From: a virus
Length of the DNA stretch: 22,192 bases
Direction: 5' to 3' (one strand)
IMG/VR virus record: IMGVR_UViG_3300032665_000212
Coordinates: 1 to 22,192 of that record
Of this stretch, positions 6,954 to 10,251 are shown piece by piece. The first letter of the stretch is position 1; each line of letters begins with the position of its first letter. Under the pieces are notes generated by a model, which saw nothing but the letters and a program-made list of their open reading frames with translations, was not told the origin of the DNA and did no database searches. A program made the position numbers and the translations under genes.

Positions 6954-7589
6954 TTAATTGTATAGAGCTGCGTATAAAGCTTGCATCTCTTTCCAAGCCT
7001 TCTTGTCTCTAGGGCGCATTTCTCCGATGCCAAGTCCTTCAGCAGCTGCATTGCGAAAAGCTTTTCGATTGCCGATAGTGCAGGGAAGCACTTCTATTTC
7101 GGCGAATTCCTTCAATATGGCCCTAGCCTCTTCGTTATCGTTTCCTTGAGGATCAGCCTGGCAAATGACAGCAAAGGCTCTGAGATAGACGTTTACGCAT
7201 TCTGAAAGGATCACGCGGATAGGCGACATCGTCCAAATGTCAATCGAAGATGGCTTGAAAGGAAGAAGCAGCTTATCGGCAATGCAAAGAGCCGAGCGCT
7301 GACTTGTAGTATCTCTACCCCCCGTATCTACGATTATGTCGTCATAGTCGTCTTTGAGCTTTTTCAAATTGGCATGGATCGATTTACCCGACATGCATAC
7401 CGTGACAAAAGAAGCACCCAAAATGTCGCCCACGAGGCAATCTCGTTGCTGTGACCAATCCCAGGCGCTCTTTTGTTCGTCCGCATCGACTAAAAGGACT
7501 TTCTTAGAAGCAGCTCTCATGACTGCAAGATTCGTGGCAATTGTGGTCTTGCCGCTACCGCCCTTGATTCCTCCTATGACCAAGATCAT
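6954..7589 (-). CDS. parA: ParA-type partition ATPase (211 aa)
   Basis: Short, type Ib-sized ParA without an N-terminal HTH domain. The deviant Walker A KGGSGKTT is at residues 9-16 with its signature lysine (K9), followed by LLVDADEQ at 32-39 (A' motif) and the Walker B-like DIIVDTGG at 84-91. The start (ATG 7589) has AGGAG five bases upstream. ParA dimers bind DNA nonspecifically and pull or tether plasmid copies with a centromere-binding partner, here the downstream RHH protein. It is followed by the RHH and Cys-rich genes as one unit. Its place between portal and scaffold genes is odd for a virion operon and points to stable extrachromosomal inheritance of the prophage. A non-partition role is possible but less likely. 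Confidence 0.9.
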   Translation of the reverse strand: MILVIGGIKGGSGKTTIATNLAVMRAASKKVLLVDADEQKSAWDWSQQRDCLVGDILGASFVTVCMSGKSIHANLKKLKDDYDDIIVDTGGRDTTSQRSALCIADKLLLPFKPSSIDIWTMSPIRVILSECVNVYLRAFAVICQADPQGNDNEEARAILKEFAEIEVLPCTIGNRKAFRNAAAEGLGIGEMRPRDKKAWKEMQALYAALYN

Positions 7590-7624
7590 ATATCTCCTAT
7601 ATGCTTGATATAGGTAGGATATAT
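7588..7624. promoter_or_regulatory. Two ATATA-N-TATAT boxes upstream of parA (candidate operator/centromere) with promoter-like elements
   Basis: Box one (7588-7602) is ATATA-N5-TATAT and box two (7608-7624) is ATATA-N7-TATAT. Both are related to the box at the RHH gene start. On the minus strand a weak promoter, TTGATT then 17 bases then TATCCT, overlaps box two. This arrangement suits autoregulation of parA by the RHH protein, and the boxes may also be part of the centromere. Boxes and spacing are directly visible; the role is inferred. Confidence 0.5.
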
Positions 7625-7653
7625 AGAAGGAATATGGAAATCAAATAGAAAAA

Positions 7654-7730
7654 GGCACGAGTAAGACTTGCGCTTACGCCTTAGCCAGGTCATAACCCTG
7701 ACTACGTTCTACTACCTGAACTATCATGCC
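7654..7730 (-). tRNA. tRNA-like gene, apparent anticodon UAU, with an 8-bp anticodon stem
   Basis: The minus strand folds as a cloverleaf. The acceptor is GGCATGA paired with TCGTGCC (seven pairs, one G-U). The D arm has stem GTTC/GAAC with loop AGGTAGTA, and the T arm has stem GTAAG/CTTAC with a seven-base loop CGCAAGT. The anticodon arm pairs TAGTCAGG with CCTGGCTA (eight pairs, one G-U) around loop GTTATGA, where U33 is followed by UAU (isoleucine). The normal stem is five pairs. The T-loop lacks the usual TT at its start and the D-loop lacks GG, so the D/T contact is likely lost. No CCA is encoded; the 3' end is followed by a T-run. It could be a functional phage tRNA-Ile, a decayed tRNA, or a tRNA mimic. 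Confidence 0.6.
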
Positions 7731-7809
7731 ATGGTAAAATGGGGCCGATGGCTCACAGGCATCCGCACCCCTACTTGCGGTTATCAGTCACAAGTAATAA
7801 GACAATAAA
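7731..7809. other. Non-coding stretch with hairpin potential between the tRNA-like gene and the 60-aa gene
   Basis: About 80 bases with no open frame that has a ribosome binding site. It holds CCGCA...TGCGG and GATG...CATC complementary arms and a GGGG/CCCC pairing that precedes ATTTTACC on the minus strand. It may act as a weak terminator or processing site in front of the tRNA-like gene. I tried to fold it as a second tRNA and could not. Confidence 0.3.
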
Positions 7810-7992
7810 CTATTGCTTGGGCTCATGTAGAGTCAAGCGCTTACCGTCATGACGCATAGCATTTTCTTGGATATCCCGCATCGTGTGCTCAGGCTCTCTG
7901 CGATAGTTGAGCGAATATTGCTCATTCATGCTTATAGGGCCTTGTTGCACCTCAACGGGCTCTCTAGGCGACGATCTTTCTTTTTTTGCCAT
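7810..7992 (-). CDS. Small polar protein (60 aa), unknown function
   Basis: ATG 7992 follows GGGAG at seven bases. The protein starts MAKKERSSPREPVEVQQGPI and is rich in Arg, Glu, Pro and Gln throughout, with no hydrophobic core, so it is probably disordered. It is second in a pair of small genes behind portal, ending with TAG. The N-terminal MAKK resembles the neighbouring 65-aa protein's internal MAKRGYEQ. It may be a minor head protein or assembly factor, but nothing in the sequence shows this directly. Confidence 0.6.
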   Translation of the reverse strand: MAKKERSSPREPVEVQQGPISMNEQYSLNYRREPEHTMRDIQENAMRHDGKRLTLHEPKQ

Positions 7993-8007: not shown

Positions 8008-8205
8008 TTAGGAATAACGGCCTTGATAAGATTGCTTATTCACGTCTTTTGCCATGCCAGCTTGCCTTTTGTCTTGGCGCTCGACATACTCAGTGGTTTT
8101 ATTGAAACCTCGCTGAGAAAAGTCTTTTTCAGGTTTTTGATAGCTTTCAACCGTGGGTTTCATGTCCCCTTGTTCGTAGCCTCTTTTTGCCATTGCTTCT
8201 TTCAT
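8008..8205 (-). CDS. Small charged protein (65 aa), unknown function
   Basis: ATG 8205 is preceded by GGAGAGGTGA, a strong site. The protein starts MKEAMAKRGYEQGDMKPTVE and is rich in Lys, Gln, Glu, Arg and Tyr with almost no hydrophobic residues. It lies 30 bases after portal and 15 before the 60-aa gene, in the same direction. Low-complexity polar composition suggests a disordered virion-associated or assembly protein. No family recognised. Confidence 0.65.
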   Translation of the reverse strand: MKEAMAKRGYEQGDMKPTVESYQKPEKDFSQRGFNKTTEYVERQDKRQAGMAKDVNKQSYQGRYS

Positions 8206-8235: not shown

Positions 8236-10251
8236 TCATGCAACAGTTTGTTTATTTTCAACTGTTTCCTTTTCTGGATTAGCTGCAGGACTTAAAGCAT
8301 TTAAAATCTCGACTTGCTGCATGATGTGATCGAGATCAATACCTTTTAGCTCCTTAATCGCCTTGACTACATTGAGCAAGCTATTTGTATCCTCTTGGTG
8401 AGCTCTGCGCAGCTTATCTTCGGCAACGGCGTTATCGGTCTTGATCTTAGCAACGCGCTCGGCGGCTAGTCCTTCTTGACTATGCGCATAAGCTACCTTC
8501 GTCATGTTATCGATCTGCATCTGCTGCATTTGCAATTGCTCGACCTTCTGTTGCTGGTCAGCAGCGGCTTTCTGTTTAGCCAGCACCTTCTCAACGAGGC
8601 TATCTTTATTCTGGATTGTCATACGCTCTAAGACTTCATCGGGAGGCACGAGATCAGGATATAGCTGCTGGAAGTGCAGTATTTGAGCAAGCTCTAGCTG
8701 TTGTTGCGTTTCGGTAAGAGCGGCCTGAACGACCTTACAGCCGTATTTAAAGAAGATTTTGCTATCAAATTCGGCCGTAGGCTCTTCGCCTATGACTTGC
8801 CGCACCTTGCCATAAGTCCAATTCCTCTGAATGTATTCGACTTCGATATTGCTGCAAAGACGTTGCGCTGTATCTACTTGATCGAAGAGGCGCTGCAAAT
8901 TCCTTGCCGTAGCTGCCTGTCTCATCATAGAAATGATGCCTGCCTTGTCATCGATATCCATGCCCATGGCGCTAGGATCGATGCCAGCTACGTTGTAGAA
9001 GATGCCTTTAAGCATCTCTTCCATTTGTAACATGACAGGCGAAGGAGGAACGATAGGCATAGGTTGCACATCATCCATTTGAAAATCTGGATCAATCGAA
9101 AGAACGCGACCATGACCTTGGTTTAATGAATCTTCTGGCGTTACAAGAGCGCCCTTTTTAACCTTTAATCCCTGTTGTTGAGCATCGAGTATTTCTAGGT
9201 TAGAAATTTTGAGGCGGTTCAAAAGGTACTGGCAATCCCTAAGCATGGTCATGGGGCTATTGAATTTGTAAGCGTAATAGGGAGAATCCATGTTGCAGAG
9301 GCTCATAAGAGGTACGACAGGGTAGCGATCCATGCCATAGGGATTCGGCTCATCGACAATGACGCGGTCATTTAAAATAATACTGCGTCGCACAGTAGGA
9401 ACATTTTTTTTAACCACGGCGAGCTTTCCTTTGAAGGCTTGCATGATTTCTTTGAGCTGCTCTTCTGTCCCTTGAAATTCCTGGCATTCCTCAGTTTTCT
9501 TATCCACAAGGAATTTAGCTTCTCGATTCGTAAGATACCAATATTCATCAAAAGCAATAAGATTAGGAAATTGGATTTGATAGACTTCGGGCATATAGTA
9601 AAATTTATCATCGCGATACGTTCCTTTTGGCAAAGAGAGGATTTCATCGCCAAATTGCGGATATATAATCGCCGCTTCCTGAGCATCGAAGAAGGTTCTT
9701 ACCCACCAGAAACGGGCATCGCTCATGTCGGCTTTGCGGAAATAGGGATCAAAGAGCGTCGCCTTCATGTCTATGTAGCGCCATCGAGGATCAGGGCTTA
9801 TCGGATCTTTTGTTGAATCTCCGTAAAGATACATGAAACCTAAGCCTTGAATGATCGCCCCCTGCTGGAAACAATCGCTAAAAGTCTCGTGAAAGCCGCA
9901 TTTGTGATTGTGATAGAGGCACTTTGTTAGCTGATCTGCCGTCTTTTGCATTCCATTATGAATCGGAATGACAGCAGAGCTTTTGCGCGTCTGTCTCTGT
10001 TGGCCGCTTATCGCCTCGCTGATTGGATTCATGATATTGAAGTTCCAAATCTTGCGGCGATACGTCGCAACCCCTGGAAAAATGAGCCCCCAGACTTCCT
10101 GGTCATTCATGGTAAAGCGCTGATTTAGATCGGCCTGATACCATTGCGTCTGAAGGATATTGATGCTATCGGAATAATTCTTTTCCATGGCCTGGCGCAA
10201 AGACACATTAAGACTATCTTCCGGCCAGAAAATCGGTGAATTGTTTCTCAA
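8236..10251 (-). CDS. Portal protein, P22-like (671 aa)
   Basis: The portal forms the dodecameric ring at the capsid vertex through which DNA is packed and ejected. The N-terminal half contains 'GVATYRRKIWNFNIMNPISE' and the core has 'QQGAIIQGLGFMYLYGDSTK'. Near residue 400 is 'GIFYNVAGIDPSAMGMDID', and a long Gln-rich coiled-coil C-terminus (about 530-640) matches the P22-type group, which is similarly long. The start is TTG at 10251, chosen because GGAGG lies seven bases before it; the next Met is 21 residues in. It leads the head operon. Late in the protein 'KQKAAADQQQKVEQLQMQQM' forms the C-terminal helix typical of portal barrels. Confidence 0.85.
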   Translation of the reverse strand: MRNNSPIFWPEDSLNVSLRQAMEKNYSDSINILQTQWYQADLNQRFTMNDQEVWGLIFPGVATYRRKIWNFNIMNPISEAISGQQRQTRKSSAVIPIHNGMQKTADQLTKCLYHNHKCGFHETFSDCFQQGAIIQGLGFMYLYGDSTKDPISPDPRWRYIDMKATLFDPYFRKADMSDARFWWVRTFFDAQEAAIIYPQFGDEILSLPKGTYRDDKFYYMPEVYQIQFPNLIAFDEYWYLTNREAKFLVDKKTEECQEFQGTEEQLKEIMQAFKGKLAVVKKNVPTVRRSIILNDRVIVDEPNPYGMDRYPVVPLMSLCNMDSPYYAYKFNSPMTMLRDCQYLLNRLKISNLEILDAQQQGLKVKKGALVTPEDSLNQGHGRVLSIDPDFQMDDVQPMPIVPPSPVMLQMEEMLKGIFYNVAGIDPSAMGMDIDDKAGIISMMRQAATARNLQRLFDQVDTAQRLCSNIEVEYIQRNWTYGKVRQVIGEEPTAEFDSKIFFKYGCKVVQAALTETQQQLELAQILHFQQLYPDLVPPDEVLERMTIQNKDSLVEKVLAKQKAAADQQQKVEQLQMQQMQIDNMTKVAYAHSQEGLAAERVAKIKTDNAVAEDKLRRAHQEDTNSLLNVVKAIKELKGIDLDHIMQQVEILNALSPAANPEKETVENKQTVA

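What the first reader, a model, noticed from the sequence alone, without database searches (positions are those of the whole stretch)
7654..7730. tRNA-like gene with an 8-bp anticodon stem and altered D- and T-loops
All four arms pair well, including compensating G-U pairs, but the anticodon stem has three extra pairs. The residues that normally join D- and T-loops (GG and TT) are changed. Good stems with lost tertiary contacts suggest selection for the secondary structure rather than simple decay. It could be a tRNA mimic, a decoy for host tRNA-cutting defences, a non-standard tRNA-Ile(UAU), or a processing signal between portal and par transcripts.
Basis: partly seen in the sequence, partly recalled or inferred. 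Interest (0 to 1): 0.65.

Follow-up and report, generated by a model that had tools for sequence, protein, structure and literature searches.

The report
Phage tRNA-like RNA with repurposed anticodon arm
A soil-phage genome carries a small RNA gene folded like a transfer RNA whose message-reading arm is lengthened and no longer conserved; many related phages keep the same folded RNA at the same spot, so it is a real RNA with a job other than ordinary decoding, although that job is not yet known.

Summary
On the MINUS strand, window 7730-7654 folds into a full cloverleaf (z -3.3) with an 8-bp anticodon stem. ARAGORN and Rfam find nothing there. A covariance model built without the window's sequence recovers it at E about 1e-13. 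The same element lies just downstream of the portal and two small ORFs in 22 of the fetched loci. Across 26 aligned copies, 95.9% of base-pair cells pair and 72 cells are compensatory (shuffled mean 19; slid structures at most 19). Acceptor, D and T arms are conserved. The anticodon arm keeps its helix but varies freely in sequence and length (19-67 nt), so it cannot be a decoding tRNA as a family.

The 'lost' D/T-loop contacts are not lost but swapped: A18+G55 replace G18+U55 while G19-C56 stays. This coupled swap also occurs in ordinary phage tRNAs (53:10 against 2:478, p=1e-60) and is nearly absent from one bacterial phylum sampled (A18 motif 1/145, that one being the phage contig; G18 motif 143/145).

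Phages whose portals are only about 32% identical carry similar elements at the same place. Best reading: a tRNA-derived, non-decoding RNA kept as a substrate for tRNA-processing enzymes. Function is inferred.

The parts
7654..7730 (-). tRNA-like RNA gene (77 nt), cloverleaf with elongated anticodon arm
7724..7730 (-). acceptor stem 5' strand GGCATGA
   Evidence: 98.9% of cells paired in 25 distinct copies
7718..7721 (-). D stem 5' strand GTTC
7710..7717 (-). D loop AGGTAGTA (A18-G19 instead of G18-G19)
   Evidence: sequence
7706..7709 (-). D stem 3' strand GAAC
7697..7704 (-). anticodon stem 5' strand TAGTCAGG (8 bp instead of 5)
   Evidence: 7 of 7 modelled pairs show two-sided changes
7690..7696 (-). 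anticodon-position loop GTTATGA (U33, UAU at 34-36); not conserved in the family
7682..7689 (-). anticodon stem 3' strand CCTGGCTA
7678..7681 (-). variable loop AGGC (AGGTC in most relatives)
7673..7677 (-). T stem 5' strand GTAAG
   Evidence: 3 of 5 pairs with two-sided changes
7666..7672 (-). T loop CGCAAGT (G55 instead of U55; C56 and A58 kept)
7661..7665 (-). T stem 3' strand CTTAC
7654..7660 (-). acceptor stem 3' strand TCGTGCC; no encoded CCA
7649..7653 (-). T run (TTTTT) directly 3' of the acceptor stem
   Evidence: similar T-rich 3' flank in most relatives
7741..7771 (-). G+C-rich hairpin followed by ATTTTA just upstream of the element; possible weak terminator of the portal transcript
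   Evidence: not called by the simple scan; stronger hairpin + T-run directly upstream in several relatives
8236..10251 (-). portal protein gene, upstream in the same orientation
   Evidence: phrog_156, E 5.7e-41
8008..8205 (-). small ORF sm65 between portal and element, conserved
7810..7992 (-). small ORF sm60 directly upstream of the element, conserved
6954..7589 (-). ParA-like gene downstream; absent at this place in many relatives that keep the element

Best explanation
Window 7730-7654 (minus strand) encodes a conserved, tRNA-derived RNA that does not decode. SHOWN: its cloverleaf is kept by compensatory change. Its acceptor, D and T arms and the G19-C56 elbow residues are conserved. Its anticodon arm keeps a helix but not an anticodon or a length. 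It sits at one place, just 3' of the portal/small-ORF genes on their strand, in many relatives. INFERRED: it is transcribed as the tail of the portal transcript, by read-through where a terminator precedes it. RNase P, and perhaps 3'-end enzymes, recognise the intact acceptor/T/elbow half and cut it out, giving a small stable RNA and a defined 3' end for the portal mRNA. The anticodon arm, freed from decoding, serves as a variable stabilising or protein-binding arm (a kink-turn-like motif in one subgroup). Whether the useful product is the trimmed mRNA end or the released RNA is open; I lean slightly to the first because the position is so strictly kept.
For: Fold and model. Covariation: 11 sequences, MAFFT alignment, window not included: 31 compensatory cells, 0/500 shuffles; 25 distinct copies: 95.9% paired, 14 of 23 pairs with two-sided change, 72 such cells against a shuffled mean of 19.1; slid controls 26-56% paired. 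Conservation by region (mean pairwise identity): acceptor 0.84-0.86, D stem 0.94, T stem 0.75-0.77, anticodon stem 0.35, its loop 0.08. Position: (after sm60 in 22 loci, followed by ParA, by the convergent gene orf5915p, or by other genes); L184, L220 and L272 have portals about 32% identical to the window's and an element in the same place. No tRNA family match in the window. The G19-C56 surface is what many elbow-binding partners recognise (PMC4810234).
Against: No expression data; no RNase P, CCA-addition or aminoacylation test. Only L002 has an encoded A-CCA after the acceptor. Many phages of the clade lack the element, so it is not essential. A terminator-like hairpin directly upstream in several relatives would make a 3'-end-processing role partly redundant. 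Ordinary tRNAs sit at or near the same spot in some relatives (L014, L052, L059, L064), so the spot may just tolerate tRNA genes.
Confidence: 0.55

Rival explanations
1. A trans-acting tRNA decoy or sponge: the stable RNA binds a host factor that recognises the acceptor/elbow half of tRNAs (a tRNA-cutting defence enzyme, a modification enzyme or a quality-control nuclease), and the A18/G55 elbow helps it resist or trap that factor.
For: Top half conserved while the anticodon arm varies. The A18/G55 swap is found in phage tRNAs and hardly in bacteria of one phylum, which fits avoidance of a host elbow-recognising factor. Phage tRNAs are already proposed to evade host tRNases by anticodon-loop changes (PMC10264068).
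Against: Anticodon nucleases would need a conserved loop, and there is none. A trans-acting RNA has no reason to stay at one genomic place. No target known.
Confidence: 0.22
2. A working non-standard tRNA (ancestrally tRNA-Ile, UAU or CAU, for AUA codons) that tolerates a long anticodon stem.
For: U33-UAU loop in window, L002, L004, L010, L082 and CAU in L014, L021; AUA is 15.8 per 1000 codons in the window's main genes; A18/G55 occurs in tRNAs that look fully functional.
Against: Three extra pairs would move the anticodon relative to the acceptor end. Other copies have no anticodon and arms up to 67 nt. Anticodon stems of canonical tRNAs are consistently 5 bp (PMC7609411).
Confidence: 0.1
3. 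A decaying tRNA gene that happens to keep its stems.
For: Anticodon loop unconstrained; not detected by ARAGORN or Rfam; many relatives lack it.
Against: 72 compensatory cells in 25 copies, including all seven modelled anticodon-stem pairs; D stem 94% identical; similar elements in phages with about 32% portal identity.
Confidence: 0.05
4. A natural tRNA scaffold that displays a variable hairpin acting as an antisense or guide sequence.
For: Conserved scaffold with a hypervariable arm; L183 and L206 have near-identical scaffolds but different arms.
Against: No antisense match to the copies' own contigs above shuffled arms. Host and foreign targets could not be tested.
Confidence: 0.08

Closest known systems
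T4 species 1 RNA (rnaC) and species 2 RNA (rnaD)
   Same: Small stable phage RNAs encoded beside the T4 tRNAs; rnaC keeps a canonical-looking T arm (CCGGG-TTCGAAT-CCCGG) near its 3' end and a large region where the anticodon arm would be.
   Different: 139 and 119 nt, no R1 match, canonical T loop in rnaC; no sequence relation shown.
Pseudo-tRNAs outside translation (Bacillus cereus tRNA-Other; Staphylococcus tRNA-Gly for cell-wall synthesis)
   Same: tRNA-shaped RNAs kept without a role in translation; the Staphylococcus one has altered D and T loops and poor EF-Tu recognition (PMC3399842, PMC8007984).
   Different: Those are bacterial genes with an assigned anticodon (Trp, Gly) in the sources read; here the anticodon arm is elongated and variable.
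tRNA-Pyl
   Same: Elongated anticodon stem and no G18, G19 or T-Psi-C (PMC7609411).
   Different: tRNA-Pyl has a 6-bp anticodon stem, a short D loop and a single base between acceptor and D stem; here 8 bp, an 8-nt D loop, two bases and G19-C56 kept.
Ordinary phage tRNAs with the A18/G55 elbow (uncultured phages, e.g. L095, L129, L137, L188)
   Same: Same coupled D/T-loop swap; many have the same D arm and an AGGTC-type variable loop.
   Different: Mostly 17-nt anticodon arm with a real anticodon, CCA often encoded; 11 of 77 G55 cloverleafs in that set have arms of 24-70 nt.
Bacterial Y RNAs (YrlA), recalled from memory
   Same: Non-coding RNAs with a tRNA-like module.
   Different: As I recall, YrlA carries a separate Ro-binding stem and its tRNA-like module is closed at the acceptor end; here both RNA ends lie at the acceptor stem. 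Not tested.

Membership tests
Canonical elongator tRNA | 7-bp acceptor, 5-bp T stem with 7-nt loop, 4-bp D stem, 4-5-nt variable loop | tested here: met
Canonical elongator tRNA | 5-bp anticodon stem and 7-nt loop with conserved anticodon | tested here: not met
   8-bp stem in window; arm 19-67 nt and loop 8% identical across copies
Canonical elongator tRNA | G18-G19 and T54-U55-C56 | tested here: not met
   A18-G19 and C54-G55-C56
Canonical elongator tRNA | recognised by tRNA finders | tested here: not met
   ARAGORN 0 genes, Rfam 0 hits; ARAGORN calls some relatives with conflicting identities
Canonical elongator tRNA | aminoacylation and decoding | not testable with these tools
   needs experiment
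tRNA-Ile (UAU) | UAU anticodon kept by relatives | tested here: not met
   UAU in 5 and CAU in 2 copies; absent from the rest
Pseudo-tRNA (non-translational tRNA-like RNA) | tRNA fold under selection without a decoding constraint | tested here: met
Pseudo-tRNA (non-translational tRNA-like RNA) | stable expressed RNA not on polysomes | not testable with these tools
   no expression data
T4 species 1 RNA | sequence or model similarity | tested here: not met
   R1 matches only T4 Thr, Pro and Ile tRNAs, not rnaC or rnaD
tRNA-Pyl | single base between acceptor and D stem, short D loop | tested here: not met
   two bases (TA) and an 8-nt D loop; criteria from PMC7609411
RNase P substrate | acceptor/T stack plus elbow (G19-C56) with cleavage 5' of G1 | tested here: inconclusive
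   structural features present; cleavage not testable here
Kink-turn (subgroup only: L017, L019, L184, L220, L258, L272) | C-stem, 3-nt bulge, tandem G.A pairs, second stem | tested here: inconclusive
   sequence form at the arm base N-NNN-GA-UCC...GGG-GA-G in six copies; consensus recalled from memory, L017's and L258's closing pairs are U.G, fold not tested; motif absent from the window's copy

The most novel reading that the evidence does not exclude
Phages encode a widespread class of non-decoding tRNA-like RNAs in which a phage-type elbow (A18/G55 in place of G18/U55) is kept and the anticodon arm has become a hypervariable module (simple long helix, or kink-turn-like hairpin) with a function outside translation, one lineage of it fixed downstream of the portal gene.
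Probability: 0.4. Interest if true: 0.8.

Novelty: new variant of a known kind. Interest (0 to 1): 0.62.

Why it matters
Phage tRNA-like RNAs of unknown function have been known since the T4 species 1 and 2 RNAs, but as isolated cases. Here is a family with many copies, clear covariation, a fixed genomic place and a natural series of anticodon arms, so the question 'which half of the molecule matters, and to whom?' can be tested. The coupled A18/G55 swap was not found in the papers searched. It is a readable mark that separates a group of phage tRNAs from those of the bacteria sampled, and it suggests selection on the tRNA elbow during phage-host conflict. Standard annotation misses the window's copy and most relatives.

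Tried and rejected
(1) Plus-strand reading: weaker and a different fold. (2) Antisense or guide role of the arm against the copies' own contigs: longest matches do not exceed shuffled arms. (3) DNA-level relatives in annotated phages: none, and no portal relative by tblastn, so no named phage. (4) Host from MAG contigs: four hits filed under four different groups, not trusted; ParA hits in plasmids all below 60% identity. (5) First thought that G55 and A18 were special to this element: rejected after ordinary phage tRNAs with canonical anticodons showed the same pair. (6) Five cultured phages with many tRNAs: no G55 T loop, so the swap is not general to phages. (7) Link to the par cassette: rejected, the element persists without ParA.

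Full report
CHECK OF THE OBSERVATION. The stretch 7654-7730 reads as a cloverleaf on the minus strand: acceptor GGCATGA/TCGTGCC, D arm GTTC-AGGTAGTA-GAAC, an 8-bp anticodon stem TAGTCAGG/CCTGGCTA with loop GTTATGA, variable loop AGGC, T arm GTAAG-CGCAAGT-CTTAC. Its predicted minimum-energy fold is this cloverleaf, with the T loop drawn slightly differently (-27.4 kcal/mol, z -3.28, 0 of 200 shuffles as stable); the plus strand is weaker. ARAGORN finds no tRNA in the window and Rfam gives no hit at E<=1 on either strand. The record is a 22,192-base virus contig identical to the window.

RELATIVES. The portal gene (8236-10251, minus; phrog_156) brought in 80 viral contigs and four contigs filed under bacterial MAGs. 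BLAST and ARAGORN on these showed a similar element at the same place, called by ARAGORN with conflicting identities (Ser, Met, 'catg', 'gtcc') or not at all; the Trp call in L014 proved to be a separate normal tRNA. From 11 relatives, without the window, I aligned the elements with MAFFT (A3), named the cloverleaf and counted pairs: 96.0% of cells pair, 11 pairs and 31 cells with changes on both sides, 0/500 shuffles as high on those measures; structures slid by 1-3 columns pair at 30-60%. The covariance model R1 from these finds the window copy at 70.2 bits, E 1.1e-13. The model includes relatives of the window's phage, so this is strong homology, not independent discovery.

COVARIATION IN THE FULL SET. 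Twenty-six matches (25 distinct) were aligned to R1 (A4): 95.9% paired, 14 of 23 pairs with two-sided change, 72 compensatory cells (shuffled mean 19.1; slid structures at most 19), and all seven modelled anticodon-stem pairs vary on both sides. A4 is fitted to the model and leans towards it; A3 is not and agrees. The shuffles do not keep relatedness; the slid controls do. T-stem variants GTAAG/CTTAC, GTAGG/CCTAC, GAAGG/CCTTC, GATAG/CTATC, GTCAG/CTGAC and GTTGG/CCAAC are plain to the eye.

WHAT IS AND IS NOT CONSERVED. Mean pairwise identity is 0.84-0.86 in the acceptor strands, 0.94 in the D stem, 0.75-0.77 in the T stem, 0.35 in the anticodon stem and 0.08 in its loop. Arm length (positions 27-43) runs from 19 to 67 nt, against 17 in a normal tRNA. 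A U33-UAU loop is seen in window, L002, L004, L010 and L082, and CAU in L014 and L021; other copies have no such loop. L002 has an encoded A-CCA after the acceptor; most others have T-rich sequence there. The ancestor may have been a tRNA-Ile for AUA, but as a family the RNA cannot be a decoding tRNA.

THE ELBOW IS SWAPPED, NOT LOST. Position 55 is G in 25 of 26 rows, the D loop of most copies carries A-G where G18-G19 is normal, and C56 stays in most. Other tRNAs in the fetched viral contigs, many with normal anticodons and encoded CCA, show the same pair of changes. To avoid the bias of the search patterns, I counted only tRNAs that those patterns do not match: A18 with G55 53, A18 without G55 10 (several of these look misparsed), G18 with G55 2, G18 without 478; Fisher p 1.2e-60. 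The contigs themselves were still chosen by pattern, so frequencies are not estimates. In 145 genomes of one bacterial phylum the A18 D-arm motif occurs once, in the L082 phage contig itself, and the G18 motif in 143. Five cultured phages with many tRNAs have no G55 T loop. No paper in the library held A18, G55, tRNA, D-loop and T-loop together; subscription journals are not covered.

PLACE. In 22 loci of the first set the element follows portal, sm65 and sm60 on their strand, then comes ParA/RHH, the convergent gene orf5915p, or other genes. So it belongs to the portal side, not to the par cassette. Many relatives have no match at that spot. In L184, L220 and L272, whose portals are about 32% identical to the window's, a small ORF follows the portal and then a G55 tRNA-like element with a long arm; most members of that second clade lack a match.

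OTHER LONG-ARMED COPIES. Among G55 cloverleafs from the other pattern-fetched contigs, 11 of 77 have anticodon arms of 24-70 nt; L183 and L206 have near-identical scaffolds but different arms. Six copies (L017, L019, L184, L220, L258, L272) share N-NNN-GA-UCC...GGG-GA-G at the arm base, the sequence form of a kink-turn; that consensus is from memory and was not tested in 3D.

SPECIFICITY OF THE MODEL. R1 also matches ordinary tRNAs: at most 57.5 bits in four bacterial MAGs, apart from the element itself, and up to 64.9 in phage tRNAs of the A18/G55 kind. The window (70.2) is above both; L002 (61.0), L009, L017 and L019 (53-57) are not, and are assigned by place and T/D loops.

MECHANISM. Shown: conserved fold, conserved top half, unconstrained anticodon, fixed place and strand. 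Inferred: recognition by RNase P or another elbow/acceptor binder; release of an RNA and formation of the portal transcript's 3' end. In several copies a hairpin plus T-run lies directly upstream of G1 (for example L004, L014, L021, L109), so the element would be made by read-through. In the window this hairpin (7741-7771) is weak and was not called by the terminator scan. An antisense role against the own contig found no support. I cannot decide between a cis product (mRNA end) and a trans product (the RNA itself).

KNOWN KINDS. It works like a pseudo-tRNA and resembles T4 species 1 RNA in plan, but R1 does not match rnaC or rnaD. It fails the defining features of a canonical tRNA and of tRNA-Pyl (PMC7609411). 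I file it as a new variant of phage tRNA-like RNA.

Noticed in passing
L040:10641-10755, L025:2927-3040, L043:3330-3440, L009:4172-4280, L084:10691-10810 (approximate ends): A second tRNA-like family at the same intergenic spot: long variable arm, TTCAAAT/TTCGAAT-type T loop, start CCATAGTTTAA, large anticodon domain (loop TCGTACG in L040, L025, L043 and L009), possibly with a D-loop pseudoknot (CCAGGA...TCCTGG). L009 carries both families in tandem.
   Followed up: partly
L095, L129, L137, L188 and other uncultured phage contigs: Ordinary-looking phage tRNAs with coupled A18/G55 in place of G18/U55; a wide survey by host and phage family is warranted.
   Followed up: partly
L184:5750-5838: A second tRNA-like RNA directly after the element, with encoded CCA, canonical T loop and an enlarged anticodon arm.
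   Followed up: no
L303, L279, L280, L287, L323 downstream of the small ORF after the portal: Other closed, structured-looking intergenic stretches sit where related phages have the tRNA-like element (L303 has a diverged tRNA-like with CCA).
   Followed up: no
window 7590-7653: AT-rich stretch with partly repeated ATATAGG/TATATCC words between the element and ParA; could be a partition site.
   Followed up: no
L021:2779-2852 and L064:4575-4643: Further G55 tRNA-likes: a Trp(CCA)-like one with a 7-bp anticodon stem, and a Thr(UGU)-like one with a normal arm.
   Followed up: partly
L351 (phage csAssE-Sib) and L359 (Streptomyces phage GiJojo): Ro-like RNA-binding protein genes lie next to phage tRNA clusters.
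   Followed up: no
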